A stretch of DNA of 64,000 nucleotides from Gemmata palustris. Lineage in GTDB: Bacteria > Planctomycetota > Planctomycetia > Gemmatales > Gemmataceae. Numbering within the stretch: the stretch's first letter is position 1; every line of letters starts with the position of its first letter. The DNA lies in the NCBI RefSeq assembly GCF_017939745.1, contig NZ_JAGKQQ010000001.1, positions 5,208,001 through 5,272,000 of the forward strand, in the 5' to 3' direction. The translations under genes and the position numbers were made by a program. This document shows positions 31,204 to 54,486 of the stretch, in pieces. Below the pieces are notes generated by a model that made no database searches, was not told the DNA's origin, and saw only the letters and a list, made by a program, of their open reading frames with translations.

Positions 31204-31330
31204 TCCGTGCGCATGGCACATTCCGGTCACTCGTTGCTTGATTGCGCAGCGTCTCTTTACCCTGGCCGGCATTTTTTGTCACACCTGTAGGCGTTGCGGC
31301 CAATGGACGGGTAGTCATTGAGGAGGCCGT

Positions 31331-31867
31331 ATGCCGGATGTCGCTACGCCTGCGACCACCGCTCCGCCGGTCGATCCGGTGTGGGCCGCTCTCGCCGACC
31401 CAGAGGTCGGTGCGCGTCTGCTCGCCCTCGCCCGGTCCGTCCTCCGCCGTCCCGAGGTGGACCACGAAGGCCTGGTGCAGAGTGCCGTCGAACGGGCGCT
31501 CGCCAACAGCCACAAGTTCGACCCCGAAGCCGGGTCCGTGACGGCGTGGCTGACCGGGTTCGTGCGGAACGTCGCCCGCGAACAGCTCAAGCGGCAGTCC
31601 GCGGCCCCCAAAACCGATGGCGAACTGGATCGCTTGCCAGCCCGGCAATCGGACGAGACGGGCGCGGACGACCTCCGCGCCGCCCTGCGTCGGCACCTCG
31701 CCGCCTTGCCCGAACTGCTCCGCATGGCGGTTGAACTACGACACCTCGAACAACTCGACTACCCCGCGATCGCTGCCGCCGTTGGCACCACCGAAGCGAC
31801 TGCACGGCAGCGGGTGTGCCGCGGGTTGCTCTTGCTCCGCGCCCTCGCCACCAAGGAGGCGTCATGA
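31331..31867 (+). CDS. ECF-type RNA polymerase sigma factor
   Basis: A 178-residue protein with GAGGAGG five bases before ATG 31331. The sigma2 region covers about residues 25-90 (HEGLVQSAVERALANSHKFD, SVTAWLTGFVRNVAREQLKR). The sigma4 region covers about 115-172 (LAALPELLRMAVELRHLEQL, DYPAIAAAVGTTEATARQRV, the -35-binding helix-turn-helix). As the first gene of a ten-gene co-directional array with 4-bp overlaps, it probably drives its own operon and sets when the system is expressed. No anti-sigma factor is recognisable unless the next small protein fills that role. Confidence 0.8.
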   Translation: MPDVATPATTAPPVDPVWAALADPEVGARLLALARSVLRRPEVDHEGLVQSAVERALANSHKFDPEAGSVTAWLTGFVRNVAREQLKRQSAAPKTDGELDRLPARQSDETGADDLRAALRRHLAALPELLRMAVELRHLEQLDYPAIAAAVGTTEATARQRVCRGLLLLRALATKEAS

Positions 31868-32406
31868 ACCCTGCTGACCGCCTCCTGTGGCTGGACACAC
31901 AGGCCGCCCACTACCTGGCCGCCGTCGAGGCCGACGACTTCGACCGCCAGGACGCGTTGTGGGCCCTGGCCGCCCACGACCACGAACTGGAGGAGGCGCT
32001 GCACGCCGTTCACGCCGGGCTGGCTGAGGAAGCCGTTACAGGGATGGCCGCCGCCGTCGCCGCGGCGGTGGGGCAGTTCCTGCCGTCCGCCGGATTGATC
32101 CACCCGACCGGCGGGCCGGTGACGGTCGGCATGGTGGCCGACGAGCTGTTCCGCCACACGCCCGGCCGCCTGCCGCCCGCCGCCCACGCTCTGAACGAGA
32201 CGCTCCGGCGGGCGACCGACGAGCTACCGGCCGACCTGGGGTTGCCGGAACTCACCGACTGGATGGTGGCGAAGTTCGGCCCGGTGCCGACGGAATACCT
32301 GAAGGCGTTCCGGCACGCGGCGACCAAGGTGCGCATGCGGGCCAGCCCGGAGGCGGAGTATCAGTTGGCCGCCCGGCGAGCCAAACCGGCGGGAGGGCCG
32401 TCGTGA
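31864..32406 (+). CDS. Unknown protein between sigma factor and metalloprotease
   Basis: A 180-residue protein; its start ATGA overlaps the sigma-factor stop by 4 bp and its own stop overlaps the next start (GTGA), so it is translationally coupled on both sides. It is soluble and helix-rich (LWLDTQAAHYLAAVEADDFD, WALAAHDHELEEALHAVHAG, AAVAAAVGQFLPSAGLIHPT) with no transmembrane segment or recognisable motif. By position it could modulate the sigma factor or be a substrate of the ImmA-like protease; both are guesses. Confidence 0.65.
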   Translation: MNPADRLLWLDTQAAHYLAAVEADDFDRQDALWALAAHDHELEEALHAVHAGLAEEAVTGMAAAVAAAVGQFLPSAGLIHPTGGPVTVGMVADELFRHTPGRLPPAAHALNETLRRATDELPADLGLPELTDWMVAKFGPVPTEYLKAFRHAATKVRMRASPEAEYQLAARRAKPAGGPS

Positions 32407-33014
32407 GCCACGTCTCCGCTGCCGTTGCCAGCATCTACCGAAAGGCCCGTCGGGTTGTCGACCCCGTCCGCCGCGGGCCAGTGCCGCTGGCCGACCTGTT
32501 CGACGCGGCCGGCGTCTCGCACGTGGCCTTGCCGGCCCTATCGCTGTCGGCGGTGGCAGAACACCTGCTCGCTGAGCGATATGTGACCGAACCGCGCCTG
32601 GTGGCCGACTTGTTGGACGACCGGCAGCCGCTGGCCGGGCTGATATTCCGGCTGGGGGGCGACGGGCTGGCGTTCGTGAGCGCCGACGACATCCTCGCCC
32701 GCCGGCGGTTCACCGCGGCCCACGAGTTGGGGCACTTCCTGCTGCACCGCGACCGGATGACCGGGTTCATCGCCGACGTGACCATCAGTGAAACGGACGA
32801 AGGGGCCGGCGACCTGGAGCCGGAAGCCAACCGCTTCGCCGCTGAGTTGCTCATGCCGGAAGAGGTGATCCGGGCGCGGGCGACCGAGTTGCAGAGGGAA
32901 CACCAGGCGTGCCCGCGGCTGGTGCTGGCCTACCGGTTGGCGTCCGAACTGCTCGTCAGCCGCGAGGCGATGCGATACCGGCTCAAAACCCTGGGGGTGG
33001 GCGATGACGACTGA
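32403..33014 (+). CDS. ImmA/IrrE-family metallo-endopeptidase
   Basis: A 203-residue protein starting with GTG 32403 overlapping the previous stop. The zinc-protease motif FTAAHELGHFLLHRDRMTGF (HExxH near residue 110) and the downstream LEPEANRFAAELLMPEEVI, supplying the third ligand, are the IrrE/ImmA hallmarks. A C-terminal helical region ACPRLVLAYRLASELLVSRE-AMRYRL resembles the usual HTH-like tail. Known members cleave XRE-type repressors to switch on phage, ICE or stress genes. Here it lies beside a sigma factor, suggesting a proteolytic signal that derepresses the array; its target is not obvious. Confidence 0.85.
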   Translation: MSHVSAAVASIYRKARRVVDPVRRGPVPLADLFDAAGVSHVALPALSLSAVAEHLLAERYVTEPRLVADLLDDRQPLAGLIFRLGGDGLAFVSADDILARRRFTAAHELGHFLLHRDRMTGFIADVTISETDEGAGDLEPEANRFAAELLMPEEVIRARATELQREHQACPRLVLAYRLASELLVSREAMRYRLKTLGVGDDD

Positions 33015-34137
33015 CCGCGACATCCCGGCTTGGTTCCTCCGCAAGCACGGGGCGGCGACCGTCGGCGCGACACCCGTTCAACCGGCAGTGCTGCCGGAGG
33101 AAGGGGGCGAGGACGAGCCGTCCGAAACGGTGGACCGTACGGTCGAGTGCGCGGAGCACGAGTGGGAGACGAAAACGGTGTCCGAACAGCCCGCGCGATC
33201 GGGTGAGTTCCCAGAGCGGTTCATCGACGGGTCGCAGGCCGGGCGGCCGGTACTGTGCCTGCGTTCCCCAAACGGCTGGCCGATTCCGATGGTGTTGAGC
33301 GAGGTGGGGGCGGTGGCGATGAGGAGCGTGGGCCGGCGGTTCGAACGGGAGTTCGTGATCGTTGAGCGGGTGCTGAGCTTCGTCGCCGACCCCTTCCCGT
33401 GGGAGGAAGTGGAGGCGTTCGCGTCGGCCATCCTGAACAAGCCCGAACTGAAGCTCCGCCTGCTGCCCGCGAACATGCCGGACCTGAAGAAGCACTCGCC
33501 GTTCGATTACGAGGTGATGCGGCATCAGGCGACGAACCGGGCGCAGCAGGAAATGACCACTCTGGAGCGGTACGCCCTCACCCTCAACCCGTCGGTTGCG
33601 ACTCTGGTTGACGGTCAGATCGGCCGCGTGTCCGGCAACCCGAAGCCGTCCGACCCGCTGCTCATCGGGGTAACGAAATCGCACTCGAAAAACTACCTGC
33701 ACGACCGCGGCTGGCGGACCCTGCTGAGTCTGGAAGCGGACGGTCTGGAGAAGAAGGCACAACGGACGCCCGTGTTTCGCATCAGTGGTACGGGCAAAGC
33801 CTGTCTGGATCGCACCCCTGTCGCCTCGTGGTACGTCAAACTGGCCGGCGGGCCGCGGCTGGCTCCGAACTGGGGGTACGTGCGGGTGGAGATCCCGTGG
33901 GGCCAGTTCGCCCGACGGGTGAAGATGGACGACAAGAAAGACTTCGGGTTCGTGGACCGCCTCTCCCGCTGGCTGATCGACGCCCGCTGCCGCGCCGCCA
34001 GCTACGCCCGCATGCCCGTCTCCCTCGACCCGATCGTACGGGCCGAGGACGCTCTCAAGCCGCTGTTCACGCCCACCGCTGTGCTGGTGAACCGCCTGTA
34101 CCGCACGGCCGGCCTGTTCCGGGGGAACGAAGGATGA
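33004..34137 (+). CDS. NurA-like nuclease, partner of the HerA-like ATPase
   Basis: A 377-residue protein. The N-terminal FPERFIDGSQAGRPVLCLRS (near residue 70) resembles the DGS strand that supplies metal-binding Asp in NurA nucleases. Later features consistent with the fold are TLERYALTLNPSVATLVDGQ (a second acidic DG strand near 200), GVTKSHSKNYL (about 220) and WYVKLAGGPRLAPNWGYVRV with EIPWG. It overlaps the HerA-like gene (ATGA), the arrangement typical of nurA-herA pairs, in which NurA resects DNA ends driven by the HerA hexamer. The first ~60 residues are a variable acidic extension. Sequence similarity is remote, so context weighs heavily in the call. Confidence 0.6.
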   Translation: MTTDRDIPAWFLRKHGAATVGATPVQPAVLPEEGGEDEPSETVDRTVECAEHEWETKTVSEQPARSGEFPERFIDGSQAGRPVLCLRSPNGWPIPMVLSEVGAVAMRSVGRRFEREFVIVERVLSFVADPFPWEEVEAFASAILNKPELKLRLLPANMPDLKKHSPFDYEVMRHQATNRAQQEMTTLERYALTLNPSVATLVDGQIGRVSGNPKPSDPLLIGVTKSHSKNYLHDRGWRTLLSLEADGLEKKAQRTPVFRISGTGKACLDRTPVASWYVKLAGGPRLAPNWGYVRVEIPWGQFARRVKMDDKKDFGFVDRLSRWLIDARCRAASYARMPVSLDPIVRAEDALKPLFTPTAVLVNRLYRTAGLFRGNEG

Positions 34138-35885
34138 CCGACTCTCGCCCTATCCTCGGCCGCGTGGCCGCCCCGCCCGAGCACGAGTCCACCAGCGGGG
34201 TGTTTTACTTCTGGGTGGATAAAGACTGCGGGGTCGAGCGGACGCAGATCGTCACCACCACGTCGAAGGTGGGCGACCGCGAGGTGAAGTTCGTCGGCAT
34301 CGTGCAGGAGGTGTACCGCCGCAGCCGGCAGAAGGACATCGGAGAGGAGGCAGCGCGGTTCGACGGCCGCTCCGGCGAGAAGCCGCCGCCTTTCGACTCC
34401 GAGGGCATCACCTACGCCGAGGTGGCCATCCTCCGCACGACGCCGGTCGCCCACACCCCGCCGACGGAGGAGAGCGAGGTGTACCTCGCCACCCCGCAGG
34501 AGGCGCGGGAAGGGTATGGGGTGGACAGAATGGAGCACAAGCTGCCCGTCGGGTTGCTGAAGAACGGCGGGGAGCAGACCGTCGGGGCGGCCTTCATCGA
34601 CCTGGACTTCCTGCTCGGGGCGAACGGCGGGCACCTAAACGTGAACGGCATCGCCGGGGTCGGCACCAAGTCGACGTTCCTACTGCTGGTGAACTGGCTG
34701 CTCATTGAGGAGGCGAAGCGGCAGGCCCGCGAGGCCGTCAGCCGGCCCGGTAACCTCCAGGTGGTGCCGGTCGTGTTCAACGTGAAGAACTTTGACCTGT
34801 TCTTCATCGACCGCTGGAACCGCAAGTACCGGGCGAAAGAGGACCAGCATCGAAGCGAGTGGGCCGAGATGGGTTACCCGGCCCCGGCCCCGTTCGACTT
34901 GCCCACCTTCCGGGCGCCGCAGTTGAAGGGCGAACGGGTGGCCATCCGCACGGGCAACCGTACCCCGGCGGAGGTGAAACCGTACAGCTGGTCCCTGTCA
35001 GACATCATCGAGATGGGGCTGTTCAAGTACCTGTTCAGCGAGGACGACATCAGCACCGCCAACCTGGGCGGGCTGGTGAACGACGTGGAGGAGTGGCTGA
35101 CGAGCGGCCCGCCCGACGCCCCCAAACTTCGGACGGCCGACAACGCACCGCAGACCTTTCAGGAGGCGCTCGACTGGTTCAAGTCGAACAAAGAGGACAA
35201 GAAATTCTTCGGGGACTACCAGGGGAGCACCAAGAGCAGCTTCTTCCGCCGACTGAAGTACATCGTGATGGAAGGGGACGGGGTGTTGCGGCGGTACGAC
35301 ACCCAGGGCAACCCGCTACTGATTCCCGAGAAGGGGCAGACGGCCCCGTGGGTGATCGACCTGTACGGCTTGCAACGGACGCCGAGCTTGCAGCGGTTCG
35401 TGGTAGCGGCGGTGTTCCACCAGATCCAGGCCATCCAGTCGAAGCCGGGGCACGGGGCGCTCAAGTACCTCATCACCCTCGACGAGCTGAACCGCTTCGC
35501 CCCAAAAGACAGCCATGACCCGATCACGCAGAAGCTGGAGACCGTCGCCAGCGAGGGCCGCAGTCAGGGCATCATCCTGCTCGGCGCGCAGCAGCAGGCC
35601 AGCCTGGTGAAGCCTCGCGTGATCGAGAACGCGGCCGTGCGGGCGGTAGGCCGGAGCGGCACGCTCGAACTGGGGGCGGAGGTGTGGAGGTTCCTCGGGC
35701 CGAGCGCCCGCAGCGCCGCCGCCCAGCTCCAGCCGGACGAGAAGCTACTGTACCTGCCCAGCTTCCGCGAGCCGATGCTGGCGAAGATCCCGTTCCCCCC
35801 GTTCGCCCTGAGCGAAAGCGATGCCGAGCTGCCCGACGCCCCGCCCGGCCGCTCGTCCGGACCGAGAGAGCAGGACATGTTTTGA
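34134..35885 (+). CDS. HerA-like DNA-translocating ATPase
   Basis: A 583-residue protein starting at ATG 34134 overlapping the NurA-like stop. The N-terminal HAS-barrel-like region (GVFYFWVDKDCGVERTQIVT, EVKFVGIVQEVYRR) precedes a P-loop LNVNGIAGVGTKSTFLLLVN near residue 173. The loop has Thr inserted before the Lys compared with canonical GxGKS. Walker B is KYLITLDELNRFAPKDSHDP near 446, followed by EGRSQGIILLGAQQQASLVK, a typical HerA sensor region. HerA proteins form hexameric rings that pump DNA and feed NurA. The 63-nt gap to SbcD still fits one operon. Confidence 0.75.
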   Translation: MTDSRPILGRVAAPPEHESTSGVFYFWVDKDCGVERTQIVTTTSKVGDREVKFVGIVQEVYRRSRQKDIGEEAARFDGRSGEKPPPFDSEGITYAEVAILRTTPVAHTPPTEESEVYLATPQEAREGYGVDRMEHKLPVGLLKNGGEQTVGAAFIDLDFLLGANGGHLNVNGIAGVGTKSTFLLLVNWLLIEEAKRQAREAVSRPGNLQVVPVVFNVKNFDLFFIDRWNRKYRAKEDQHRSEWAEMGYPAPAPFDLPTFRAPQLKGERVAIRTGNRTPAEVKPYSWSLSDIIEMGLFKYLFSEDDISTANLGGLVNDVEEWLTSGPPDAPKLRTADNAPQTFQEALDWFKSNKEDKKFFGDYQGSTKSSFFRRLKYIVMEGDGVLRRYDTQGNPLLIPEKGQTAPWVIDLYGLQRTPSLQRFVVAAVFHQIQAIQSKPGHGALKYLITLDELNRFAPKDSHDPITQKLETVASEGRSQGIILLGAQQQASLVKPRVIENAAVRAVGRSGTLELGAEVWRFLGPSARSAAAQLQPDEKLLYLPSFREPMLAKIPFPPFALSESDAELPDAPPGRSSGPREQDMF

Positions 35886-35948
35886 CATTTTCCGGTCACA
35901 CCCGCCCGCGACTCGCCAACAGAAGTGTGCCCCCCAACGGAGACCGTC

Positions 35949-37163
35949 ATGCGGATCGTCCACACGGCTGACTGGCACCTGTGCGACCGGCTCGGCCGGC
36001 TCGATCGAACAGACGACCTGAAACGGCGGGTGGAGGCGGTGGCGAGGCTGTGCGAGGAGAACGCCGCCGACGTGCTACTGATCGCCGGCGATCTGTTCAG
36101 CGAGCAGGCGTCGGTTGACGACGTGACGGCGTCGCTCATGCACCTGCGGCAGTCGTTCCTGCCGTTTTTCGAGCGAAAGGGAACCGTCCTGGCGGTGACG
36201 GGCAACCACGATCGCAACGGCCGCATAGACATAGTGCGGGCGGGCATGGGCCTGGCCGTGCCCGACGCGGGGAGGGGCGGGCGGCTTTCACCGGGACGCA
36301 TGTACTTGGCGAACAACCCGGCGGTCGTGCGGCTGGCCGACCCCGCCGGGCACGTCGTACAGTTTGTGCTCCTGCCGTACCCGTTCCCCAGCCGGTACGC
36401 TGTGGCCGCCGACAGCTACGCGAGCAAGGAGGAGGAGAACCGCCTGGTCCGCGCGAGTGTGGCCGACTGGTTGCAGCGCAAGACAGCCGATGCCGCTTTC
36501 GAGCAAACGGTGCCGACGGTCCTGGTTGCCCACCTGCACGTGCGGGGGAGCGAATTGACCACCGCGTACAAGATGAGCGACCGCGACGACGTGCTGTTCG
36601 ACGTGGGCGAGCTGCACCCGGACTGGCGGTACGTCGCCCTCGGCCACATCCACCAGCCGCAGTGCCTGGGTGGGTCGGAAACGGTCCGCTACCCCGGCAG
36701 CCTCGACCGCCTGGACTTCGGCGAGACGCACGACACCCACGGGGTCGTGCTGTTCGACGTGGTCGGTGCGGAGCCGGTGAAGCCGGTCTCGCTACCGATC
36801 CCGGCGACGCAGTTTCACACCATCACCCTCACCGACCCAGACGCAGAGCTGCCGACCGTTCACGAGAAGTACCCGGACCACGCCACCGCCGTCGTGAGGC
36901 TGCGGGTTCACCCGCCAACCGCCACCGACCGCGAGGAGGTGAGCCGACACTTGAAGAAGATGTTCCCCCGCTGGCACTCGCTCGACTGGGTGGGGCCGAC
37001 GAGCGCGGTCACGGGCAACGAGGTAAAGTTCTCCCCGCGGGCCGGGTTCGCCGACACCGTCCGCGCCTACCTGACCGAACAACTCGACCGCGAGAACGAC
37101 CCGGACAAGGATCTCGTCCTCGCCCTCGCTGACACCTTCCTCAAGCCCGGAGGTCCGTCGTGA
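35949..37163 (+). CDS. sbcD: SbcD/Mre11-family exonuclease subunit
   Basis: A 404-residue protein starting at ATG 35949, with GGAGA upstream. The calcineurin-like phosphoesterase motifs are complete: VHTADWHLCD (DxH), VLLIAGDLFSE (GD), VLAVTGNHDRNG (GNHD), VLVAHLHVRG and VALGHIHQPQ (final GHxH). A C-terminal capping region follows (PTATDREEVSRHLKKMFPRW). Mre11/SbcD trims DNA ends and hairpins together with the SMC-like SbcC. The gene overlaps the SbcC gene by 4 bp. In this context it is probably a dedicated copy rather than the housekeeping pair. Confidence 0.9.
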   Translation: MRIVHTADWHLCDRLGRLDRTDDLKRRVEAVARLCEENAADVLLIAGDLFSEQASVDDVTASLMHLRQSFLPFFERKGTVLAVTGNHDRNGRIDIVRAGMGLAVPDAGRGGRLSPGRMYLANNPAVVRLADPAGHVVQFVLLPYPFPSRYAVAADSYASKEEENRLVRASVADWLQRKTADAAFEQTVPTVLVAHLHVRGSELTTAYKMSDRDDVLFDVGELHPDWRYVALGHIHQPQCLGGSETVRYPGSLDRLDFGETHDTHGVVLFDVVGAEPVKPVSLPIPATQFHTITLTDPDAELPTVHEKYPDHATAVVRLRVHPPTATDREEVSRHLKKMFPRWHSLDWVGPTSAVTGNEVKFSPRAGFADTVRAYLTEQLDRENDPDKDLVLALADTFLKPGGPS

Positions 37164-39793
37164 TCCCCAAGCGCGTCACGCTCGAAAATTTCCTCAGCTA
37201 CGGGCCGAAAACGGAGATCGCCTTCGCCGCCGACGAGCCCCTGTGGGTGGTCGGCGGGCCGAACGGGGTGGGCAAGAGCGCGGTGTTCGACGCCATGACA
37301 TACTGCCTTTACGCCGAGCACCGCGGCGGCGGGCGGGGGCACGAGCAACTCATCCGCCACGGCGCGGACGGGTTCAAGGCGGCATTCGAGTTCCAGTTCG
37401 TCGGCATCGACTACCGCATCACCCGCACCCGCCAGCGGCGGGGGCGGACGACGCAGGCAGTGGAGCGGCTGGACGGCGGGTGCTGGGCGCGGGTGCCCGA
37501 CGTGGACGGGGCCGAGGCCGTCACCGAGTGGGTGCGGTCCACCCTCGGGCTGCCGTTCGAGGCATTCTGCGCGTCCGTACTGCTCCGGCAGGGGCGGGCC
37601 GACGACATCCTCGACGCCGCCCCGGCCAGGCGGCTGGAGACGCTCAAGAAGATCATTGGGGTGGAGCGGTACGAGGAGCTGAGTGGGCGGGTGAACGAGG
37701 CCGGCAAAGAGCGGGCGCGGGAGTTGGAGCGGTTGCGGCGTCAGCGGGCGGGCATCGAGGACGTGACCCAGGCCGACCTCGAAAGCGAGCAAGAGGCGGT
37801 GAATCGCACTGCCGCCGCCCGCGAACTGGCCGACGCCACCCGCACCCGCGCCGTGGCCGCCGTGCCTCAGGCCGAGCAGTGGGCTCGGCTGACCGCCGAG
37901 GGCGCCGACCTGACCCGCAAACTGGCCGAAGCGGACGGACGGAGCCGGGACGAAGCTGCCATCCGCCACGACCACGCCCGGTACGTCGAGCTGTCCGCCG
38001 TCGTCCCTGTCCTGGAAGAACTCGGTCGACTGCGGGCGACGGTGGCCGACGCAGAAACGCGGTACACCGCCGCCACCCGCCGCCGCGACGAGTTGCGGGC
38101 GAAGCACGATGCCGACCGCCAACGGGCGGAGGGGCTGCGACTTGTCGTCAGCGACCAGCGGCGAGCAGCTGCCGACCTGTCGAACGAGGCAGACGTGGCG
38201 ACGAAAGACAGCGAGCGGCTGAGCGGGCTGCTCACCATCGCCGACGAGTTGGCGACGGCCGACCGCGGGGCCGATGCCTTTCCCGATACGCTCGACGCCG
38301 AGTTGGCGGCCGCGAGGGTTGCGAAGGTGAGCGTGGCGGAGGCCGAACGGACCGCCCGTGACGCCGAGGCGGAAATCGCCGGATTATTGAAGGAGGCCAA
38401 GAAGCAACAGAAGGCGTTCGCCGACGTGACAGTCGGTATCACGTGTTCGCAGTGCGGTCAGGAGGTGACGGCGAAGCATGCGGAGGACGAGCGTAACCGA
38501 CTGGCCGACCGCGTGGCTGCGCACACCGCCGCGGCGACTGAGGCGAAGGCGAAATCGGCCGACGCCACCTCGGACCGTGAAGCGGCCGACGCTCGACTGA
38601 AGACGCTGACCGACGACATCGCCGAGCGGAACCACCTGCGGCAGCGGCGGTCCGACCTGGAACGCAGCTTGACCGCGCTGGGCTCGGCGACCGACCCGGC
38701 CGCCGTGCGGGAAGAAATCGCCCGGCTGGCCGAGCGGCTGACCGACCTGCAAGCCGAGCATTCCGCCGCGCGCGGTCGTCAGCACGAGGCCGAGCGGGAG
38801 TTGAAGGAATTGGACCCGGTAGTCAAACGGCAGGAGGGCGACCTACAGCGCGTCGAGACGGAGGCAACCCAACTCGCCACCGCTCTGGCCCGCGACACAG
38901 CCGCCTGCGACGGTCTGCTCGCCCGCCTGCCCGACGGGTGGAGGGACTCCAATGACGCCACCGCTCCGGCGGCCGACCTACGGCGACTGGCGGCCGACGG
39001 CATCGAGCCGCGGTTCCGGCAGTTGGAAGCCGACGCCACCCTCCGCCGCGAGTGGGAGGAGCGGCAGAGGAAGGTGGTTCAGGAAATGGGCGCCGTGCCG
39101 GCCGATGCCCGCATCGCGGTGGCCGACGCCCGGCAGGCCCAGCGGTCGGCCGAGCAGGTGTTCGCCTTGTGCGACACGGCCCACCGCGACGCCGTCAGCA
39201 GGATGGATGAGCTCACCCGTCGCCAGGAGCAACTGGCGACGTTGACCACCGCCGCCGCCGCCGCCGAGACGGACGCCCGCGTTCACGCCAAGCTCGACAA
39301 GCTGCTCGGGAAGGAGAAACTGCAACGCGAACTGATCCGCGAGGCGGAAGCGGCGATCGTCCGGCTGACTCAGCAGACGCTCGCCAACCTGTCCGGGGGC
39401 GACCTGTCCGTCCGGCTGGCGGATGCCGACGGGGACGATAAGGCGTTCGACCTGCTCGTGTTCCGTGGCGACGACCCGAACCCTATCCCGGTGAAGATGC
39501 TGTCCGGGTCGCAGAAGTTCCGGGTGGCAGTGTCGGTCGCTCTGGCCGTCGGCCGGTTCGCCACCGGGCAGGCCCGCCCGCTGGAGTGTGTGATTATCGA
39601 CGAGGGGTTCGGCAGCCTGGACCGTGACGGCCTACGGGCGGCGGCCGACGAACTCAACCGGCTGAAGGACCACTTGCGGCGGATCATCGTGGTGTCCCAC
39701 CAGGAGGAGTTCACCGACCAGTTCCCGGTGGTTATCCGCCTGAGCAAGGGTGACGCCGGCACCACCGCCGAGGCCGTCCGCCAGCAGCGGTGA
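37160..39793 (+). CDS. sbcC: SbcC/Rad50-family SMC-like ATPase
   Basis: An 877-residue protein starting at GTG 37160. Walker A is VVGGPNGVGKSAVFDAMTYC near residue 33. Two long coiled-coil arms surround a zinc hook VGITCSQCGQEVTAKHAEDE (CxxC near 430). The ABC signature is VKMLSGSQKFRVAVSVALAV near 780, and Walker B is ECVIIDEGFGSLDRDGLR near 810. Length is on the short side for SbcC (about 1000) but within the Rad50-like range. With SbcD it forms a DNA-end tethering and processing complex. The catalytic motifs are intact. Confidence 0.9.
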   Translation: MIPKRVTLENFLSYGPKTEIAFAADEPLWVVGGPNGVGKSAVFDAMTYCLYAEHRGGGRGHEQLIRHGADGFKAAFEFQFVGIDYRITRTRQRRGRTTQAVERLDGGCWARVPDVDGAEAVTEWVRSTLGLPFEAFCASVLLRQGRADDILDAAPARRLETLKKIIGVERYEELSGRVNEAGKERARELERLRRQRAGIEDVTQADLESEQEAVNRTAAARELADATRTRAVAAVPQAEQWARLTAEGADLTRKLAEADGRSRDEAAIRHDHARYVELSAVVPVLEELGRLRATVADAETRYTAATRRRDELRAKHDADRQRAEGLRLVVSDQRRAAADLSNEADVATKDSERLSGLLTIADELATADRGADAFPDTLDAELAAARVAKVSVAEAERTARDAEAEIAGLLKEAKKQQKAFADVTVGITCSQCGQEVTAKHAEDERNRLADRVAAHTAAATEAKAKSADATSDREAADARLKTLTDDIAERNHLRQRRSDLERSLTALGSATDPAAVREEIARLAERLTDLQAEHSAARGRQHEAERELKELDPVVKRQEGDLQRVETEATQLATALARDTAACDGLLARLPDGWRDSNDATAPAADLRRLAADGIEPRFRQLEADATLRREWEERQRKVVQEMGAVPADARIAVADARQAQRSAEQVFALCDTAHRDAVSRMDELTRRQEQLATLTTAAAAAETDARVHAKLDKLLGKEKLQRELIREAEAAIVRLTQQTLANLSGGDLSVRLADADGDDKAFDLLVFRGDDPNPIPVKMLSGSQKFRVAVSVALAVGRFATGQARPLECVIIDEGFGSLDRDGLRAAADELNRLKDHLRRIIVVSHQEEFTDQFPVVIRLSKGDAGTTAEAVRQQR

Positions 39794-47798: not shown

Positions 47799-50497
47799 GC
47801 GATTCATTCACCCGCGGCGACCGTGTCCACCACCCCAAGTTCGGCATCGGAGAGGTGCGGTTCGACGACCGCGAAACGGTAGGGGTCCGGTTCGAGCACG
47901 GGCTGGAAGAGTGCCCCGCCGCACAACTCCAGCGGCTCGACTCGTTCGCCGCCGCCCTCGCCCGCCCGGACCTCGACCCGCCGGCGGAGGTGATCGTCCG
48001 CGCGCTCGGTGACGCCGTGCGGTCGGTGAACGACGCCTGGGGGGTGTTCTCACGCTCGCGGATCGCGCTGCTGCCGCACCAGCTGTGGGTCTGCCGGCAG
48101 GTGAACCGCGACCGCCCGGCCCGCTGGCTGGTGGCCGACGACGTGGGCCTGGGCAAGACCATTGAGGCCGGACTGATCCTGATGCCTCTGCTGTCGTCCG
48201 GCGAGGTGCGACGGCTGCTCGTGCTCTGCCCGGCGAGCCTCGTTGGGCAGTGGCAGTACCGGCTGCGGACCATGTTCGACATCCGGCTGACGGCCTACTC
48301 GCCGGACGCCGACACCCCGAAGGCCGACTTCTGGAACACCCAGAACCAGGTTGTGGCGTCGGTGCAGACCCTCCGCGCCGACAAGGACGGAAAGCACGGG
48401 CGGCACAAGCGGTTGCAGGAGGCCGAGCCGTGGGACATGGTGGTGGTAGACGAGGCCCACCACCTGAACGCCGACGCGGACGCCGGCCCCACACTCGGGT
48501 ACACGTTGGTCGAGAAGCTGTCCGCCGCCGGCCGCATCAAGTCGATGGTGTTCTTCTCCGGCACCCCACACCGCGGCAAGGACTTCGGCTTCCTCGCCCT
48601 GCTCAAGCTGCTCCGCCCCGACCTGTTCGACACCCGCCGCCCTCTGAGCGAGCAGCTCGGCCACCTGCCGCGGGTGATGATCCGCAACAACAAGCAGCAG
48701 GTGACCGACCTGGCCGGCGACCGCCTGTTCCAGGAGCCGCTGGTCCGCTCCGAGACGTACGCGTACTCGCCCACCGAGACCGCCTTCTACCACATGTTGA
48801 GCGAGTTCATCCTTACCGGGAAGGCGTACGCCGGCACGCTCGGCCAGGGCGAGGGGCGGGCGGTGATGCTGGTGCTGATCGCCATGCAGAAGCTGGCGTC
48901 CAGCTCGGTGGCGGCCATCCGGCGGGCGGTCCGCGGGCGGCTGGAGAGGACGACCGGCGGGCGGGAGGCGCTCCGGGAGATCCAGGACCAGTTGGCCAAA
49001 CTCCGCGGCGAGATGGACGCGGACGACGACGAGGTAAACGCCCTGGAGGAGCAGGCGGTGGCCGTGTCCACCCAACTGCGCCTGATGGACGACGAACTGC
49101 CGCGACTGAGGGAGTTGCTCGCAGCGGCCGACGCCGTTACCGACGAGACCAAAATCAACAAGATCCTTGAACTGGTCGATGGCCCGTTCGGCGGCCGATC
49201 AGTCCTGTTCTTCACCGAGTACAAGGCGACCCAATCCCTGCTGCTGTCGCGGCTGCTGCGGCGGTTCGGTCCCGACTCGGCCACCTTCATCAACGGCGAC
49301 GAGCGGGCGGACGAGGTGGACGACGGCACCGGCCCCCGCACCCTGGTCGAACCCCGCGAGCGGGCGGCCGAGCGGTTCACAGGCGGGCAGGTACGGTTCC
49401 TTGTCTCCACCGAGGCCGGGGGCGAGGGGATCGACCTCCAGGCCAACTGCTCCAGCTTGATCCACGTCGACCTCCCGTGGAACCCGATGCGGCTCCACCA
49501 ACGGGTCGGGCGGCTGAACCGCTACGGGCAGACCCGCCGGGTGGAGGTGTTCACGGTCCGCAACCCGGACACCGTCGAGGCCCGCATCTGGGACCACCTG
49601 AACGCCAAAATCGAGCGGATCAGCACCGCCCTGCGGCAGGTGATGGCCGACCCGGAGGACGTGCTCCAACTGGTCCTCGGCATGGCCTCCCCCGCCCTGT
49701 TCCGCGACCTGTTCGCCTCGGCCGCCGAGGTGAAGCCGGAATCGCTCGGCGACTGGTTCGACACCCGCACGGCGACGTTCGGCGGCCAGGACGCGCTCAC
49801 CGCCGCCCGCGGGCTGGGCATGCACGTGGCGCGGTTCGACTTCCGGCGGGCGTCCGCACTCGTGCCCCGGATCGACCTGCCGGCCCTGAAGCCGTTCTTC
49901 AAGCTGATGCTCCAATTGAACCAGCGCAAAGTGAAGGACGATGAGACCGGCCTGTCGTTCCTCACCCCGGACAAGTGGCAGACCGAACCGGGGGTCGCAC
50001 GCGAGTACGCCGGTATGCTGTTCGACCGCTCGGCGGGCACGAGGGAATCGACCCTCGGCGTGGGGCACAAGCTGGTGGACCAGGCCGTCGCCCAGGCCCG
50101 CGGGCAGACCGCGAGCGTCGGGCCGGTGCTCGCCGAGTTGCTCCCCCACCCGCTGGCGGTGTTCCGCATCACCGACCGGGTCACCGGCGGGGGCGGGGTG
50201 GTGCGGGCGGTGACGGCGGCGGTGGACGTGACGGCCGACGGGTTCGTTCTCGTTCGCGATTGGGAACTGGTGGTCCGGCTGAACGCGATCATCACCGACC
50301 GTGACCCGCGGCGATTCCGATTACAAGCGATGACAGACCCCGCGGAGACGGCCGTTCGGGCCGAGGCGGCGCGGGTGTGGCTGAACGCTCACCTGACCGA
50401 CCTCGACCCGCCGTTCCAGGTGCCGGAGGTTACGCTGACGTGCCTCCTGCTACCCGGCGTCCGCACCGCCTCGGACGCTCCGACCACTGACGAGTAA
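47795..50497 (+). CDS. SNF2/RapA-like superfamily 2 helicase
   Basis: A 900-residue protein starting at GTG 47795. A small N-terminal beta-rich domain (RGDRVHHPKFGIGEVRFDDR) of the kind that precedes some helicases is followed by the ATPase core. Motif I is LVADDVGLGKTIEAGLILMP near 111, motif Ia VLCPASLVGQWQYRLRTMF, motif II VVVDEAHHLN (DEAH) near 218, motif III FFSGTPHRGKDFGFLALL, and motif VI LHQRVGRLNRYGQTRRVEVF near 570. These enzymes translocate on double-stranded DNA. The arrangement is similar to the SNF2-type helicases of phage-defence systems such as DISARM and Dpd, but no methylase or 7-deazaguanine insertase accompanies it. It is coupled to the GHKL giant by a 4-bp overlap. Confidence 0.85.
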   Translation: MSDSFTRGDRVHHPKFGIGEVRFDDRETVGVRFEHGLEECPAAQLQRLDSFAAALARPDLDPPAEVIVRALGDAVRSVNDAWGVFSRSRIALLPHQLWVCRQVNRDRPARWLVADDVGLGKTIEAGLILMPLLSSGEVRRLLVLCPASLVGQWQYRLRTMFDIRLTAYSPDADTPKADFWNTQNQVVASVQTLRADKDGKHGRHKRLQEAEPWDMVVVDEAHHLNADADAGPTLGYTLVEKLSAAGRIKSMVFFSGTPHRGKDFGFLALLKLLRPDLFDTRRPLSEQLGHLPRVMIRNNKQQVTDLAGDRLFQEPLVRSETYAYSPTETAFYHMLSEFILTGKAYAGTLGQGEGRAVMLVLIAMQKLASSSVAAIRRAVRGRLERTTGGREALREIQDQLAKLRGEMDADDDEVNALEEQAVAVSTQLRLMDDELPRLRELLAAADAVTDETKINKILELVDGPFGGRSVLFFTEYKATQSLLLSRLLRRFGPDSATFINGDERADEVDDGTGPRTLVEPRERAAERFTGGQVRFLVSTEAGGEGIDLQANCSSLIHVDLPWNPMRLHQRVGRLNRYGQTRRVEVFTVRNPDTVEARIWDHLNAKIERISTALRQVMADPEDVLQLVLGMASPALFRDLFASAAEVKPESLGDWFDTRTATFGGQDALTAARGLGMHVARFDFRRASALVPRIDLPALKPFFKLMLQLNQRKVKDDETGLSFLTPDKWQTEPGVAREYAGMLFDRSAGTRESTLGVGHKLVDQAVAQARGQTASVGPVLAELLPHPLAVFRITDRVTGGGGVVRAVTAAVDVTADGFVLVRDWELVVRLNAIITDRDPRRFRLQAMTDPAETAVRAEAARVWLNAHLTDLDPPFQVPEVTLTCLLLPGVRTASDAPTTDE

Positions 50498-50517
50498 ACC
50501 TCACCAACGAGTGCCCC

Positions 50518-53500
50518 ATGCCCCCGAGCGCCCCCGCCGTCGCCGCCCCGATCCGCCACCTGTCGATCCGCGTGCCCTGGCACGACGCCGGCTGGGCCGG
50601 CACCGTGTGCGACGACCCGACCGCCAACACCGCCTGCCTGGTGCTCAAGCGGATCGGGGCGGAGCGGGACGACGCGGCCGAGCAGACCGCCCGCGGCAAG
50701 CCCCTGACCGTGCTGTCGGAACAGGATTTGCCGTGCTGCGCCAGCGAGCGGGGGTTCTTCATGGCACCGTTCGAACTGACTCGGACGAAGACCCACCCTT
50801 ACGCCGAATGGTCGGACCAGCACGCACACTTCCGCCCGACCCCGTTCCGCCACCCGCCGTACTCGGCCGACGTGGTGCCGTTCCGCTGGATGTTCAAGCC
50901 CGAGCGGTGGACGGACCCGAAGAAGCCGAACGAGCCGGACTTCCGCGATTACCTGCGACTCGACCTCGACCCGGTCCGTGAGCCGGAATTGAAGATGAAA
51001 TCGGACATCTGGATGCAGCAGCGGGACAATCACCTGGCCTCGCTCGACGCCTTCTTTGCCCCGGTCCGCCCGGATCAGTCGCTCTGCTTCTTCTACGCCA
51101 AGCGGACGCCGCTCTCGGACGACCCGCGGCGAGTGATCGTCGGCGTCGGGCGGGTGAAGCACGTCGGCGATGCCCACGAGTACGCCTACGGCGTGCCGGC
51201 GGCCAAGGCCCCGCTGCGGTCCATGCTGTGGGAGCGGATGGTGCAGCACACCATCCGCCCGCGGGGGAAGGACGGGGCAGACGGGTTCGACGGCGGGTTC
51301 CTCCTGCCCTACCACCAGGCCCTCGCACACGCGGCGGCGCACCCGGAATTCGACCCGGCGGCGGTGCTGGCGTTCGCCCCCGACGACCGGCGGGACGAGT
51401 TCAGCTACGTGAGCGAGCAGGTGTCGCACGACGCCGCCATCGGCGGGCTGCTCGCCTGTGCCGCCGCACTGCGGGAGGCGGCGAAACACTTGCCGGGGCC
51501 GTGGGACCGCTACCAGAAGTGGATCGACTTCGAGCTGGCCCGGCTGTGGACCCTCCGCGGCCCGTGCCCCGGTCTGGGGGCGGCGTTGACCGCGTTCGGC
51601 ATCGAACTGGGCACGCTGGTCGCCCACGCCCTGGCCCCGCAGGTCGGCGACAACGTCGATCCGTGGCCGGTGGTGGAGAAGATGTTCGACTCCCCGACCA
51701 AACTGCTCCCTGCCCCGCTCGCCAAGCAGATCGACAAGGACACGCGGGCGGAGTGGAAGGGGTTACCGGCCGACCGACGCGGCCTGCTCAAACTGCTCAG
51801 CCGGTTCGAGTTGTCGCCGGAGCAGGCGGCAGTGCTGTACGAACCGTCCGAGCGGCATCCGGCGGGGATCGACTGCACCGACGCCGACATCCTTGACAAC
51901 CCGTACCGGCTGTTCGAGGCCACCCGACTGACCGCCCGCCCGATCAGTCTGTCCACCGTGGACCGCGGGGTGTTCCCCGATCCGGTGGTGGCCGACAAGC
52001 ACCCGCTGCCCGAGCGGACCCGCCTGGACACCGGCACCGACGTCCGGCGGGTGCGGGCGTGGGTGGTGCAGACGCTCGAAGAGGCGGCCGGCAACGGCGA
52101 CACGCTGTTGCCGCGAGACGAGATCATCGCTGCCGTCCGCGGCCGCGAGTTGCGGCCGGGCTGCCAGGTCACCACCGACCGCATGACCCTGGCCGAGAAG
52201 TCGTTCGCCCCGGAGGTGGACGTGGCGCCGCTGCACGACGGACAGGCGGCGTTTCAGCTTCGCCGCATGAAGGAGTGCGGAGCGGTCATCCGCACGGCGG
52301 TCGAGAAGCGGACGAAGGGGAAACCGCACGCCGTCGCGGCCGACTGGCCGGCCGTTCTTGCAACCGCCCTCGGCCCGGTGAACCCGGGCGACGCACGTGA
52401 CGTTCGGGCTCGGCAGGAGAAAGCGGCGGCGCTCGGTGTGCTGGCGACCGCCCGGTTCGCCGTCCTCATCGGTCCGGCCGGCACCGGCAAGACCACCCTA
52501 CTCGCCGCCCTGTGCGGGCAACCGGACGTGGCTGACGGCGGGGTGCTGCTGCTCGCCCCCACCGGCAAGGCACGGGTGCGGATGCAGCAGGCGGCCAAGC
52601 AGAAGAACCTGAATCTGTCCGGGCAAACGGTGGCCGGGTTCCTACTCGACTCAGGGCGATACTACCCGGACACCGGGCGTTATCGGCTACTCGGCAAAAC
52701 CGGCTCGGCGGTGGCGGACACGGTGATCGTGGACGAAGCCTCCATGCTCACCGAGGAGATGCTGGCGGCGGTGCTGGAGGCGGTGGGCGGGGCGAAGCGG
52801 GTGATCCTGGTGGGCGACCACCGCCAACTCCCGCCCATCGGGGCCGGGCGGCCGTTCGCCGACATCGTGGTACGGTTGGCCCCGGCAGGGGTAGAGTTCG
52901 CCTTTCCGCGGGTCGGGCCGGGGTACGCGGAACTGACGGTGCGGATGCGGCAACAGGACAAGACCGGCAGGGCGGCGGCGGACGTGCGTCTGGCCGGCTG
53001 GTTTGCCGGCGGCGACCCAGGCCCCGGCGAGGACGACCTGTTCGCCCAGTTGAACACGTTCGGCCCGACGGACCGGCTCCAAGTGTTCTCCTGGCGGACG
53101 CCGGACGAATGTCACCAACTCCTGATGACGGTGCTCCAGGCCGAACTGAAGCTGACCGGACCGGACGACCAACTCGCCTTCGACAAGTCGCTCGGCGGGG
53201 CCGAGTCGGGCGGGCTGTGTTACTTCAACCGCTCGTGGGAGAGGGACGAAAAGAAGGGCGGGGTGTGGGACGCGGCTGAGCGGTGGCAGGTGCTCAGCCC
53301 GGTGCGGGGGCAGCCGCACGGGGTGGCCGGGCTGAACCGACTCATCCACGACGCCCTCCGCCGGCGGAACGTGGAGTTCGCCCGCCAACGGTTCCGCAAA
53401 ACACCCGAGCCGCTCGGCCCGGAGAACATCGTCTACGGGGACAAGGTGATTCAGGTGCGGAACCAGCGGCGGTACTGGGAAGTGTACCCGGACGAGGGGT

Positions 53501-54486
53501 GCTTGAAGTACGTAGCGAACGGAGAGATCGGGCTGGCCGTCGGGCAGTTCAAGGGCCCCCAGGCGAAGTACAAGGGGTTCCCGTGGAAACTGGAGGTGGA
53601 GTTCACCTCGCAGCCGGGGTTCACCTACGGGTACACCGACCGCGACTTCGGCGAAGAGGGAGAAGCCCCGATCGAGCTGGCCTACGCGCTCACCGTGCAC
53701 AAGGCGCAGGGGAGCGAGTTCGGCACGGTGATCGTGGTACTACCCGACCCGTGCCGGGTCCTCTCCCGCGAGCTGCTGTACACCGCCCTCACCCGCCAGA
53801 AGGACCGCGTGGTGCTGCTGGTCCAGGGCGACCCGGCCTTCCTCCGCCGGTACGCCGCCGCCGAACACTCGGCAACCGCTCGGCGGCTGACCAACCTCTT
53901 CGCCCCGCCCGCCCCGGTGGTGGTCCGCCAGGTGCGGTTCGACGACCGGCACATCCACCGCACCGCCCGCGGCGAACTGGTCATGTCCAAGTCGGAGGTG
54001 ATCATCGCCAACGAACTTCTCCGGCTGAAGGTCGAGTACGCCTACGAGAAACCGCTGCGGTTCGGGAGCGCGGAGCGGTTCCCGGACTTCACCATCGACG
54101 ACCCGGTGAGCGGAGTGACGGTGTACTGGGAACACTGCGGGATGCTGGCCGACGACGGCTACCGGGAGCGTTGGGAGGCGAAACAGAAGTGGTATCGGGC
54201 GAACGGCGTCCTGCCCATTGAGGAAGGCGGTGGACCGAACGGCACGCTTGTGGTGACCGATGACGACCCGAAAACCGGATTCGATTCGACACGGGTCACC
54301 GAGATCGTCACGCGACTCGGCTTAGTGACTGTCCCATATGCCTCGAAATCGCCGTATTTTCGAGTTGTCACCCACGATTTCTCAGGCTTTTTCGCACATA
54401 TGGGACAGTCACTTAACACTTTAAATTGTGTCGAGGGTCATGTGGACTCAGACCCACGTGCTGGACAAGGCTGGAGGCTGGCTTAG
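50518..54486 (+). CDS. RecD-like helicase with C-terminal PD-(D/E)XK-like domain
   Basis: A 1,322-residue protein 20 bp after the SNF2 gene. Residues 1-560 are an uncharacterised N-terminal region. The superfamily 1 core has VLIGPAGTGKTTLLAALCGQ near 651, TVIVDEASMLTEEMLAAVLE near 736, ILVGDHRQLPPIGAGRPFA, and ELAYALTVHKAQGSEFGTVI near 1060. The C-terminal part has LVMSKSEVIIANELLRLKVE, then FPDFTIDD and VYWEHCGMLADDGY (about 1155-1215), the E ... PD ... (D/E)xx pattern of restriction-like nucleases. A combined unwinding and cutting role is likely. The last ~55 residues are encoded by a 97-bp palindromic repeat, and the stop lies within its second copy, so the native C terminus has been replaced. 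Confidence 0.85.
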   Translation: MPPSAPAVAAPIRHLSIRVPWHDAGWAGTVCDDPTANTACLVLKRIGAERDDAAEQTARGKPLTVLSEQDLPCCASERGFFMAPFELTRTKTHPYAEWSDQHAHFRPTPFRHPPYSADVVPFRWMFKPERWTDPKKPNEPDFRDYLRLDLDPVREPELKMKSDIWMQQRDNHLASLDAFFAPVRPDQSLCFFYAKRTPLSDDPRRVIVGVGRVKHVGDAHEYAYGVPAAKAPLRSMLWERMVQHTIRPRGKDGADGFDGGFLLPYHQALAHAAAHPEFDPAAVLAFAPDDRRDEFSYVSEQVSHDAAIGGLLACAAALREAAKHLPGPWDRYQKWIDFELARLWTLRGPCPGLGAALTAFGIELGTLVAHALAPQVGDNVDPWPVVEKMFDSPTKLLPAPLAKQIDKDTRAEWKGLPADRRGLLKLLSRFELSPEQAAVLYEPSERHPAGIDCTDADILDNPYRLFEATRLTARPISLSTVDRGVFPDPVVADKHPLPERTRLDTGTDVRRVRAWVVQTLEEAAGNGDTLLPRDEIIAAVRGRELRPGCQVTTDRMTLAEKSFAPEVDVAPLHDGQAAFQLRRMKECGAVIRTAVEKRTKGKPHAVAADWPAVLATALGPVNPGDARDVRARQEKAAALGVLATARFAVLIGPAGTGKTTLLAALCGQPDVADGGVLLLAPTGKARVRMQQAAKQKNLNLSGQTVAGFLLDSGRYYPDTGRYRLLGKTGSAVADTVIVDEASMLTEEMLAAVLEAVGGAKRVILVGDHRQLPPIGAGRPFADIVVRLAPAGVEFAFPRVGPGYAELTVRMRQQDKTGRAAADVRLAGWFAGGDPGPGEDDLFAQLNTFGPTDRLQVFSWRTPDECHQLLMTVLQAELKLTGPDDQLAFDKSLGGAESGGLCYFNRSWERDEKKGGVWDAAERWQVLSPVRGQPHGVAGLNRLIHDALRRRNVEFARQRFRKTPEPLGPENIVYGDKVIQVRNQRRYWEVYPDEGCLKYVANGEIGLAVGQFKGPQAKYKGFPWKLEVEFTSQPGFTYGYTDRDFGEEGEAPIELAYALTVHKAQGSEFGTVIVVLPDPCRVLSRELLYTALTRQKDRVVLLVQGDPAFLRRYAAAEHSATARRLTNLFAPPAPVVVRQVRFDDRHIHRTARGELVMSKSEVIIANELLRLKVEYAYEKPLRFGSAERFPDFTIDDPVSGVTVYWEHCGMLADDGYRERWEAKQKWYRANGVLPIEEGGGPNGTLVVTDDDPKTGFDSTRVTEIVTRLGLVTVPYASKSPYFRVVTHDFSGFFAHMGQSLNTLNCVEGHVDSDPRAGQGWRLA
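54319..54415. repeat. 97-bp palindromic element, copy 1 (MITE-like)
   Basis: The ends AGTGACTGTCCCATATG (54324-54340) and CATATGGGACAGTCACT (54397-54413) are perfect 17-bp inverted repeats around a non-coding centre. The copy lies inside the helicase coding frame and reads through without a stop. It is identical to copy 2 at 54480. Confidence 0.85.

What the first reader, a model, noticed from the sequence alone, without database searches (positions are those of the whole stretch)
31331..54486. Candidate undescribed multi-gene system: sigma factor, ImmA protease, NurA-HerA, SbcCD, double-GHKL giant, SNF2 and RecD-nuclease
Seen: ten co-directional genes over 23 kb, mostly with 4-bp stop/start overlaps. 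Known: HerA-NurA and Mre11-Rad50 together process DNA ends, mainly in archaea, and SNF2 helicases recur in anti-phage systems. Inference: combining both end-processing complexes with a double-GHKL ATPase, two helicases and a dedicated sigma factor/protease pair looks like a regulated anti-mobile-element machine. I can match it to no named system (it is not DISARM, BREX, Dpd, Zorya or Druantia by content).
Basis: partly seen in the sequence, partly recalled or inferred. Interest (0 to 1): 0.88.

Follow-up and report, generated by a model that had tools for sequence, protein, structure and literature searches.

The report
Portable self-regulated DNA-end-processing gene cassette
What looked like one ten-gene machine is at least two separate portable gene sets lying side by side; one of them, seven genes that pair a built-in on-switch with two DNA-cutting engines known best from heat-loving archaea, recurs in the same order in several bacterial phyla and probably acts against invading DNA.

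Summary
The ten co-directional genes are there, but they are not one system. Genes 1-7 (ECF sigma factor, unknown protein X, ImmA protease, NurA, HerA, Mre11, Rad50) form a cassette: 23 of 44 loci compared, the window included, have all seven, all 23 in the same order, in Planctomycetota, Cyanobacteriota, Chloroflexota, Armatimonadota and Acidobacteriota, twice on plasmids. No other cassette locus shows the GHKL giant or the RecD-nuclease; one has an SNF2-type protein 3.6 kb away. GHKL+SNF2 is a separate pair on Deinococcus plasmids and, on other contigs, in two Gemmataceae that also carry the cassette. The RecD-nuclease matches the single-gene defence candidate PDC-S68. The cassette is patchy (20 of 95 family genomes), sometimes interrupted or recombined, and adjoins type I-G CRISPR-Cas genes in four loci. 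PADLOC has no model for the window's sigma, X, NurA, HerA or Mre11. Most likely an inducible anti-invader cassette in which ImmA inactivates X and frees the sigma factor (inferred). Main rival: inducible double-strand-break repair. New variant of a known kind.

The parts
31331..31867 (+). ECF-type sigma factor (178 aa), cassette gene 1
   Evidence: Pfam Sigma70_r2 and r4_2; TIGR02937 1.3e-16; upstream GTCAC element at -53
31864..32406 (+). X, unknown all-helical protein (180 aa), cassette gene 2; proposed sigma-binding protein and protease substrate (inferred)
   Evidence: no Pfam/NCBIfam hit; AlphaFold2 pLDDT 83, pTM 0.49, no Foldseek match at E <= 0.001; with sigma and ImmA in 25 of 25 cassette loci that have it
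32403..33014 (+). ImmA/IrrE-type zinc protease (203 aa), cassette gene 3
   Evidence: Peptidase_M78 1.6e-19; HELGH present
33004..34137 (+). NurA nuclease (377 aa), cassette gene 4
   Evidence: AF2 model pLDDT 89 matches solved NurA structures; D75 (FIDG) and D203 invariant in 30 rows
34134..35885 (+). HerA DNA translocase (583 aa), cassette gene 5
   Evidence: phmmer to D. radiodurans HerA 2.5e-47; alignment A1
35925..37163 (+). Mre11/SbcD nuclease (412 aa from GTG), cassette gene 6
   Evidence: Metallophos, TIGR00619 9e-26; motif patterns present
37160..39793 (+). Rad50/SbcC ATPase (877 aa), cassette gene 7
   Evidence: TIGR00618 6e-48; GPNGVGKS, CSQC, DEGFGSLD
39794..40460 (.). 667-bp gap that separates the cassette from the next unit
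40461..47798 (+). 2,445-aa protein with two sacsin-type GHKL ATPase stretches; second unit, gene a
   Evidence: SACS two stretches; TmtA models match parts; paired with SNF2 elsewhere
47795..50497 (+). SNF2 helicase-like protein (900 aa); second unit, gene b
   Evidence: PADLOC DrmD model PDLC02634 1022 bits but NCBIfam DrmD 273 bits, under its cut-off of 610
50518..54486 (+). RecD-type helicase of candidate family PDC-S68 (1,322-aa ORF)
   Evidence: PADLOC PDC-S68 1570.7 bits over residues 11-1267; homologues standing alone

Best explanation
The 23 kb is a stretch of defence-type island holding at least two portable units and a third gene. The core is a seven-gene cassette. Shown: its genes, order, intact catalytic motifs, spread over phyla, patchiness, and CRISPR-Cas neighbours in some loci. 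Inferred mechanism: X holds the ECF sigma factor inactive; ImmA, switched on by a signal of invasion or DNA damage (zinc release is the precedent in IrrE), inactivates X by cleavage; the freed sigma factor transcribes the cassette from its own GT(A/C)A(C/G) promoter (positive feedback); Mre11-Rad50 opens or trims DNA ends and the HerA ring pumps the DNA into NurA, which degrades it. Broken or linear invader DNA is the likely target, so the outcome is inducible clearance of foreign DNA. The neighbouring GHKL-SNF2 pair and RecD-nuclease are separate defence-type units that happen to lie beside it here.
For: All seven genes in 23 of 44 loci, same order in 23 of 23; 20 of 28 with enough flank. Distances co-vary (NurA-HerA 0.77, HerA-Mre11 0.83, X-NurA 0.74; 19 loci). 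X comes with sigma and ImmA in 25 of 25 cassette loci. In L070/L071, without adjacent sigma or X, ImmA has lost the HExxH glutamate (HALGH, HTLGH). GT(A/C)A(C/G) at -80 to -41 before sigma in 18 of 24 loci, against a mean of 2.1 and a highest count of 8 in 2000 draws of random 40-mers from the same loci. Patchy: 20 of 95 family genomes, 4 of the 18 other genomes of the genus. Plasmid-borne. Recombinant: Aulosira X/ImmA/NurA 98/100/99% identical to Chlorogloeopsis, HerA/Mre11/Rad50 48/32/28%. Type I-G cas genes follow the last cassette gene within about 0.1-1.6 kb in L104, L073, L063, L110, arrays in the first three; no such match in 12 control stretches. In G479 a sigma gene and the start of X run into a type I restriction system. 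The genome has another SbcD.
Against: No phage or plasmid challenge exists. NurA-HerA and Mre11-Rad50 are best known as repair enzymes. X shows no recognised anti-sigma fold; its binding and cleavage are guesses. Sigma distances correlate weakly with the rest (0.23-0.37). Only 4 of 44 loci show type I-G neighbours (several are too short to tell; other Cas types were searched for only by arrays). The sigma-X-ImmA triad also stands without NurA-HerA (L174-L176), and an X-like fragment without a matching ImmA occurs in L177, so the switch is not exclusive to this job. L062/L088 has an intact HExxH but no sigma or X found in 4.8 kb upstream. Three loci with room to see it show NurA-HerA without Mre11-Rad50 (L086, L098, L104), and L100, L109, L113 lack all three switch genes. 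The promoter pattern was chosen after reading the same sequences.
Confidence: 0.5

Rival explanations
1. Inducible DNA-repair cassette: the same switch (sigma, X, ImmA) senses DNA damage and turns on end resection of the host's own double-strand breaks, as IrrE/DdrO induces repair genes in Deinococcus.
For: NurA-HerA with Mre11-Rad50 resects ends in archaea (PMC9960219 passages); IrrE cleaves DdrO on damage via zinc (PMC7907104 abstract); closest solved HerA and NurA are Deinococcus ones; a Thermus HerA mutant is UV and heat sensitive (PMC5448004 abstract).
Against: Patchy, plasmid-borne, split by insertions in two loci and recombined in one; the genome keeps another SbcD; PMC9960219 passages say nurA or herA deletion in D. 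radiodurans or Thermus gave modest or improved resistance to radiation and mitomycin C.
Confidence: 0.28
2. Spacer-acquisition helper: the cassette makes DNA fragments for Cas4-Cas1-Cas2 of neighbouring type I-G CRISPR systems.
For: Type I-G genes directly downstream in four loci of two phyla; nurA-csm6-herA beside CRISPR arrays in Pyrobaculum, proposed to act in adaptation (PMC3396285 passages).
Against: 40 of 44 loci show no type I-G match directly downstream, though several end too soon and only type I-G-like queries and exact-repeat arrays were used; no such cas match in the window.
Confidence: 0.1
3. Element-borne function: a plasmid or island module for its own replication, transfer or competition.
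For: Whole on plasmids of Chlorohelix and Aulosira, as a four-gene form on plasmids of Sphaerospermopsis and Streptomyces.
Against: The Limnoglobus copy is in a record titled chromosome (L086); I saw no constant transfer or replication partner in the neighbourhoods listed.
Confidence: 0.08
4. One reading: all ten genes are one regulated machine.
For: Co-directional and close together here; RecD, GHKL and SNF2 also together on one Sphingomonas plasmid.
Against: Cassette and other units occur apart elsewhere; 667-bp gap.
Confidence: 0.04

Closest known systems
Archaeal herA-rad50-mre11-nurA cluster (Constantinesco 2004; seen only as a title in the reference list of PMC3396285)
   Same: Same four enzymes in one gene cluster
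   Different: Bacterial, order nurA-herA-mre11-rad50, plus sigma factor, X and ImmA; patchy, sometimes plasmid-borne. The archaeal gene order is recalled, not checked
Deinococcus radiodurans NurA-HerA (7f6d; PMC9960219 passages)
   Same: HerA by sequence, NurA by fold
   Different: The passages read mention no sigma factor or ImmA; its gene neighbourhood was not examined here
IrrE/DdrO and ImmA/ImmR switches (PMC7907104 abstract; PMC10233336 search listing)
   Same: HExxH zinc protease next to a small regulator
   Different: Here the partner is X beside an ECF sigma factor; no Pfam HTH in X
HerA-nuclease defence systems (HerA-DUF4297, search listing; HerA/FtsK capture systems, PMC10853773 passages)
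   Same: HerA-type ring with a nuclease in an anti-invader role
   Different: NurA instead; no PADLOC hit for the window's HerA and weak hits (best 1.9e-5) among 11 relatives
PADLOC PDC-S68; DISARM DrmD; Tiamat TmtA (for genes 8-10)
   Same: RecD full-length match to PDC-S68; SNF2 full-length match to one PADLOC DrmD model; sacsin-type domain shared with TmtA
   Different: NCBIfam DrmD cut-off not reached; best TmtA stretch covers about 100 residues

Membership tests
NurA-HerA complex | HerA homologous to a solved HerA | tested here: met
   7f6d_B 2.5e-47
NurA-HerA complex | NurA fold with conserved acidic residues | tested here: met
   7f6d_G 1.4e-12, 1zup 7e-12, 2ygk 4.2e-07; D75, D203 invariant in 30 rows
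NurA-HerA complex | Physical complex and end resection | not testable with these tools
   one locus, L110, joins a shortened NurA to HerA in one open frame
Mre11-Rad50 (SbcCD) | Phosphodiesterase and ABC/hook motifs | tested here: met
   window shows all four Mre11 patterns and GPNGVGKS, CSQC, DEGFGSLD; NCBIfam SbcC cut-off itself is not reached
IrrE/ImmA protease | M78 domain with HExxH | tested here: met
IrrE/ImmA switch | Cleaves the neighbouring regulator | not testable with these tools
   inference only
sigma/anti-sigma pair | X has a known anti-sigma domain | tested here: inconclusive
   no Foldseek match at E <= 0.001; all Z under 5
DISARM | DrmD equivalog score | tested here: not met
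   NCBIfam 273 bits against cut-off 610, although PADLOC PDLC02634 gives 1022
DISARM | Other DISARM genes in the ten-gene set | tested here: inconclusive
   no DrmB or DrmC among the rows shown for nine proteins; ImmA was not in the call and the SNF2 and Rad50 lists were cut at 25 of 53 and 25 of 44
Tiamat (TmtA) | Match over the length of a TmtA model | tested here: not met
   two stretches at most; the best is residues 18-123 to positions 21-115 of 1370
PDC-S68 | Full-length match | tested here: met
   1570.7 bits, positions 4-1218 of 1221
Known defence system in PADLOC 2023 (genes 1-7) | sigma, X, NurA, HerA or Mre11 matched | tested here: not met
   0 hits for these five window proteins; NurA 0 of 32 rows; HerA weak hits to three models among 11 rows; ImmA not tested; X relatives not tested

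The most novel reading that the evidence does not exclude
An undescribed bacterial immune cassette in which an ImmA-type protease frees a dedicated ECF sigma factor from a new kind of helical anti-sigma protein on sensing invasion, and thereby deploys archaeal-type NurA-HerA plus Mre11-Rad50 to destroy foreign DNA, in some lineages feeding the fragments to an adjoining type I-G CRISPR system. The same sigma-X-ImmA switch would be a plug-in used with other effectors too.
Probability: 0.22. Interest if true: 0.85.

Novelty: new variant of a known kind. Interest (0 to 1): 0.6.

Why it matters
Bacterial NurA-HerA has no agreed role: one study says it is present in only a few bacteria, such as Deinococcus-Thermus, and calls its function controversial (PMC9960219 passages). 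A patchy, self-contained cassette carrying NurA-HerA with Mre11-Rad50 in five other phyla, next to CRISPR-Cas in some, gives that question a directly testable setting. If the sigma-X-ImmA chain is right, it would be a new way of switching on immunity. The separation into units also corrects a tempting but wrong ten-gene system.

Tried and rejected
One ten-gene system: rejected, see above. DISARM by DrmD score and Tiamat by coverage: not met. Viral carriage: 66 stretches matched the HerA patterns in viral contigs, none was confirmed. Fold of X: 0 Foldseek matches at E <= 0.001; a second look gave Z below 5 only, which tells nothing.

Flank genes: 104 ORFs drawn from 117 (window genes 8-10 and ORFs over 1400 aa left out) against 104 of 142 control ORFs (over 1400 aa left out) from arbitrary stretches of the same six genomes. 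PADLOC: 111 families hit against 35, but only 25 are listed for each and the top ones are cross-hits of the same kinases, so I do not lean on this. Pfam (25 of 91 and 25 of 137 families listed): Cas1, Cas3, GSU0053, GSU0054 and transposases are in the flank list, none of them in the control list. That is what led to the cas operons.

Promoter: first tried as GT(A/C)AC anywhere in 110 bp, 15 of 24 against a shuffle mean of 3.4 (highest count 9 in 300), but some of these lie in the ribosome-binding site, so the count used is the position-limited one. Sigma start codons were picked by me. The overlap script picks the start nearest a 4-bp overlap, so its counts lean that way. The genome-contig scan used two short patterns, so 37 loci is a lower bound. 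L056-L075 and L080-L116 overlap in origin; duplicates, L114 among them, were dropped before the census of 44. In the tree I labelled the window apart from Planctomycetota, which adds a change to that group. Two phylum-wide HerA tallies gave no answer. Print was searched only; no preprints are held.
Full report
WHAT IS THERE. Five of nine junctions are exact 4-bp overlaps, but a 667-bp gap (39794-40460) splits genes 1-7 from genes 8-10. Domain calls: ECF sigma, unknown X, Peptidase_M78 (ImmA/IrrE), NurA, HerA, SbcD/Mre11, SbcC/Rad50, double sacsin-type GHKL, SNF2, RecD-type helicase. HerA matches D. radiodurans HerA (2.5e-47). NurA has no sequence hit, but its AlphaFold2 model (pLDDT 89) matches three solved NurA proteins.

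IT IS NOT ONE SYSTEM. Homologues of gene 10 stand without genes 1-9 on Rhizobium, Embleya and Vibrio plasmids. Genes 8-9 form a two-gene unit on Deinococcus plasmids, twice on one of them, and with a split giant in Trichormus. A Sphingomonas plasmid groups RecD, a split GHKL and SNF2, so genes 8-10 can sit together, there without genes 1-7. Among 36 genomes that hold the cassette or its NurA-HerA core, the SNF2 subfamily occurs in 2 and RecD in 1 as a partial match. In those 2 the GHKL-SNF2 pair (GHKL 53 and 56%, SNF2 80 and 88% identical to the window's) lies on another contig, with no RecD and no cassette gene in the stretches fetched; one stretch is cut inside the giant, so its far side was not seen. 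In 392 Planctomycetota sampled, SNF2 matches at E <= 1e-60 were in 5 genomes, full-scale only in the window's own; RecD matches at E <= 1e-40 were in 14, several of them partial, and their neighbours were not examined.

THE REAL UNIT: SEVEN GENES. HerA searches found relatives in 20 of 95 genomes of the family, on plasmids of Candidatus Chlorohelix, Aulosira, Sphaerospermopsis and Streptomyces, and in 37 loci of an 84,980-species collection by two short patterns. After dropping duplicates I scored 44 loci with profiles: 23 have all seven genes, all 23 in the same order; of 28 with enough flank on both sides 20 have all seven, 21 sigma-X-ImmA, 28 NurA-HerA, 26 Mre11-Rad50. Phyla of complete cassettes by record title, many of them MAGs: Planctomycetota, Cyanobacteriota, Chloroflexota, Armatimonadota, Acidobacteriota. 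NurA-HerA without sigma and X, with room upstream to see them, occurs in L100 and L113 (Chloroflexi), L109 (Dormiibacterota) and L111 (Actinomycetota); in the Streptomyces plasmid NurA comes after Rad50. None of loci L056-L116 has a GHKL or RecD homologue; SNF2-type hits occur in L068/L087 (one locus, 3.6 kb past Rad50, not found by tblastn with the window's SNF2) and weakly in L078. Of the 43 other loci, 26 hold at least 7 kb beyond the HerA frame (lengths). Protein distances co-vary between genes (19 of the 22 complete loci in that script, near-identical cyanobacterial rows dropped), least for sigma (0.23-0.37).

THE SWITCH. In the 44 loci X is found with sigma and ImmA in 25 of 25; sigma and X overlap by 4 bp in 12 of 24 and lie within 30 bp in 24 of 24 (a script that leans to 4 bp). 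X is all-helical in two parts and matches no solved fold significantly. HExxH is kept in the ImmA rows of loci with sigma and X (L063 reads HEFAH); in L070/L071, which have no adjacent sigma or X, the glutamate is A or T. L062/L088 is an exception: intact HExxH, no sigma or X found. A GT(A/C)A(C/G) element lies at -80 to -41 before sigma in 18 of 24 loci (15 of 20 with four similar cyanobacterial rows left out), against a mean of 2.1 and a highest count of 8 in 2000 draws of random 40-mers from the same 24 loci. The pattern was chosen after looking. That ECF -35 elements have such a shape is recalled, not from a call. Outside the cassette, the triad stands without NurA-HerA in three genomes of one genus (L174-L176), and an X-like fragment with a stop lies beside an opposed sigma gene in L177.

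MOBILITY AND COMPANY. In the HerA tree Planctomycetota, Cyanobacteriota and Chloroflexota need 3, 3 and 4 changes; one of the first comes from my labelling the window apart. The Aulosira plasmid copy is a recombinant: X, ImmA, NurA 98-100% identical to Chlorogloeopsis, HerA, Mre11, Rad50 48, 32, 28%. Insertions split HerA in L073 and Rad50 in L063; the L063 insert has a DDE_3 transposase, the L073 insert ORF had no Pfam hit. Type I-G cas genes follow the last cassette gene after about 0.1, 0.2, 0.4 and 1.6 kb in L104, L073, L063 and L110 (Pfam-confirmed in the first three; tblastn only in L110), with arrays of 6, 142 and 56 repeats in the first three. L057 has weaker Cas-like matches and Sphaerospermopsis has cas genes about 13 kb from HerA. 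The 12 control stretches showed no such match and no array. In G479 a sigma gene and the start of X run into a type I restriction system. The window itself goes on into a NACHT-FGE-sulfatase protein and a transposase.

HOW IT MAY WORK. Shown: genes, order, motifs, spread. Inferred: X inhibits sigma; ImmA inactivates X on a signal; sigma drives the operon; Mre11-Rad50 and HerA-NurA process DNA ends. Precedents: IrrE is activated by zinc and cleaves DdrO (PMC7907104 abstract); NurA-HerA works with Mre11-Rad50 in archaeal resection (PMC9960219 passages); nurA-csm6-herA beside CRISPR arrays in Pyrobaculum (PMC3396285 passages). Defence is favoured over repair by patchiness, plasmid carriage, breakage, recombination and CRISPR company, and by a second SbcD elsewhere in the genome. 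None of this is proof, and the Thermus HerA abstract reports repair-type defects.

NOVELTY. No PADLOC model matches the window's sigma, X, NurA, HerA or Mre11 (ImmA was not in that call; Rad50 matches several ABC-ATPase models); NurA 0 of 32 rows; HerA weakly to three models among 11 rows. The listings of paper searches showed no title or abstract start describing this set. HerA/FtsK capture systems (PMC10853773 passages; PMC12839542 passages) differ; the word Mre11 is in neither text. The library holds no preprints and lacks most subscription journals. The enzymes are known, so: new variant of a known kind.

Noticed in passing
L077 (Aulosira plasmid) 14660-23978: Recombinant cassette: X/ImmA/NurA 98-100% identical to Chlorogloeopsis L094, HerA/Mre11/Rad50 28-48%.
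   Followed up: yes
L104, L073, L063/L064, L110: Type I-G CRISPR-Cas genes directly downstream of the cassette, arrays in three.
   Followed up: partly
L174 7164-9048, L175, L176: sigma-X-ImmA triad standing without NurA-HerA; the next gene has no Pfam hit in the two tested.
   Followed up: partly
L178 1876-10675: A sigma gene and the start of X run into a type I restriction-modification system.
   Followed up: yes
L110 2157-5147: A shortened NurA and HerA in one open frame; from a MAG, so assembly error is possible.
   Followed up: partly
window 31093-31239: A queE-like fragment (49 residues used) ends just upstream of the sigma gene; the short query found no other copy in this genome, while four of ten relatives gave matches in frames of 227-244 aa.
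   Followed up: partly
window 54402-54575: The 3' end of the RecD gene is partly duplicated, so the ORF reads about 60 residues further.
   Followed up: no
window 59780-59857 and 59960-60637: Copy of a tRNA-Pro 3' end (intact gene near 7758939) beside an ORF that looks like a cut-off integrase by eye (no Pfam hit).
   Followed up: partly
window 57199-59574: NACHT domain joined to an FGE-sulfatase domain; the ORFs at 54648-56817 beside it look like hydrolase and caspase-like parts by eye only.
   Followed up: no
window 16795-17167: A 20-base unit repeated 6 times at CRISPR-like spacing, probably coding repeats.
   Followed up: no
L029 and L030 (one Deinococcus plasmid): Two GHKL-SNF2 pairs on the same plasmid.
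   Followed up: no
L070/L071 (L095/L098): NurA-HerA with a protease lacking the HExxH glutamate, without adjacent sigma and X; L098 also shows no Mre11 or Rad50, while L095 ends too soon after HerA to tell.
   Followed up: partly
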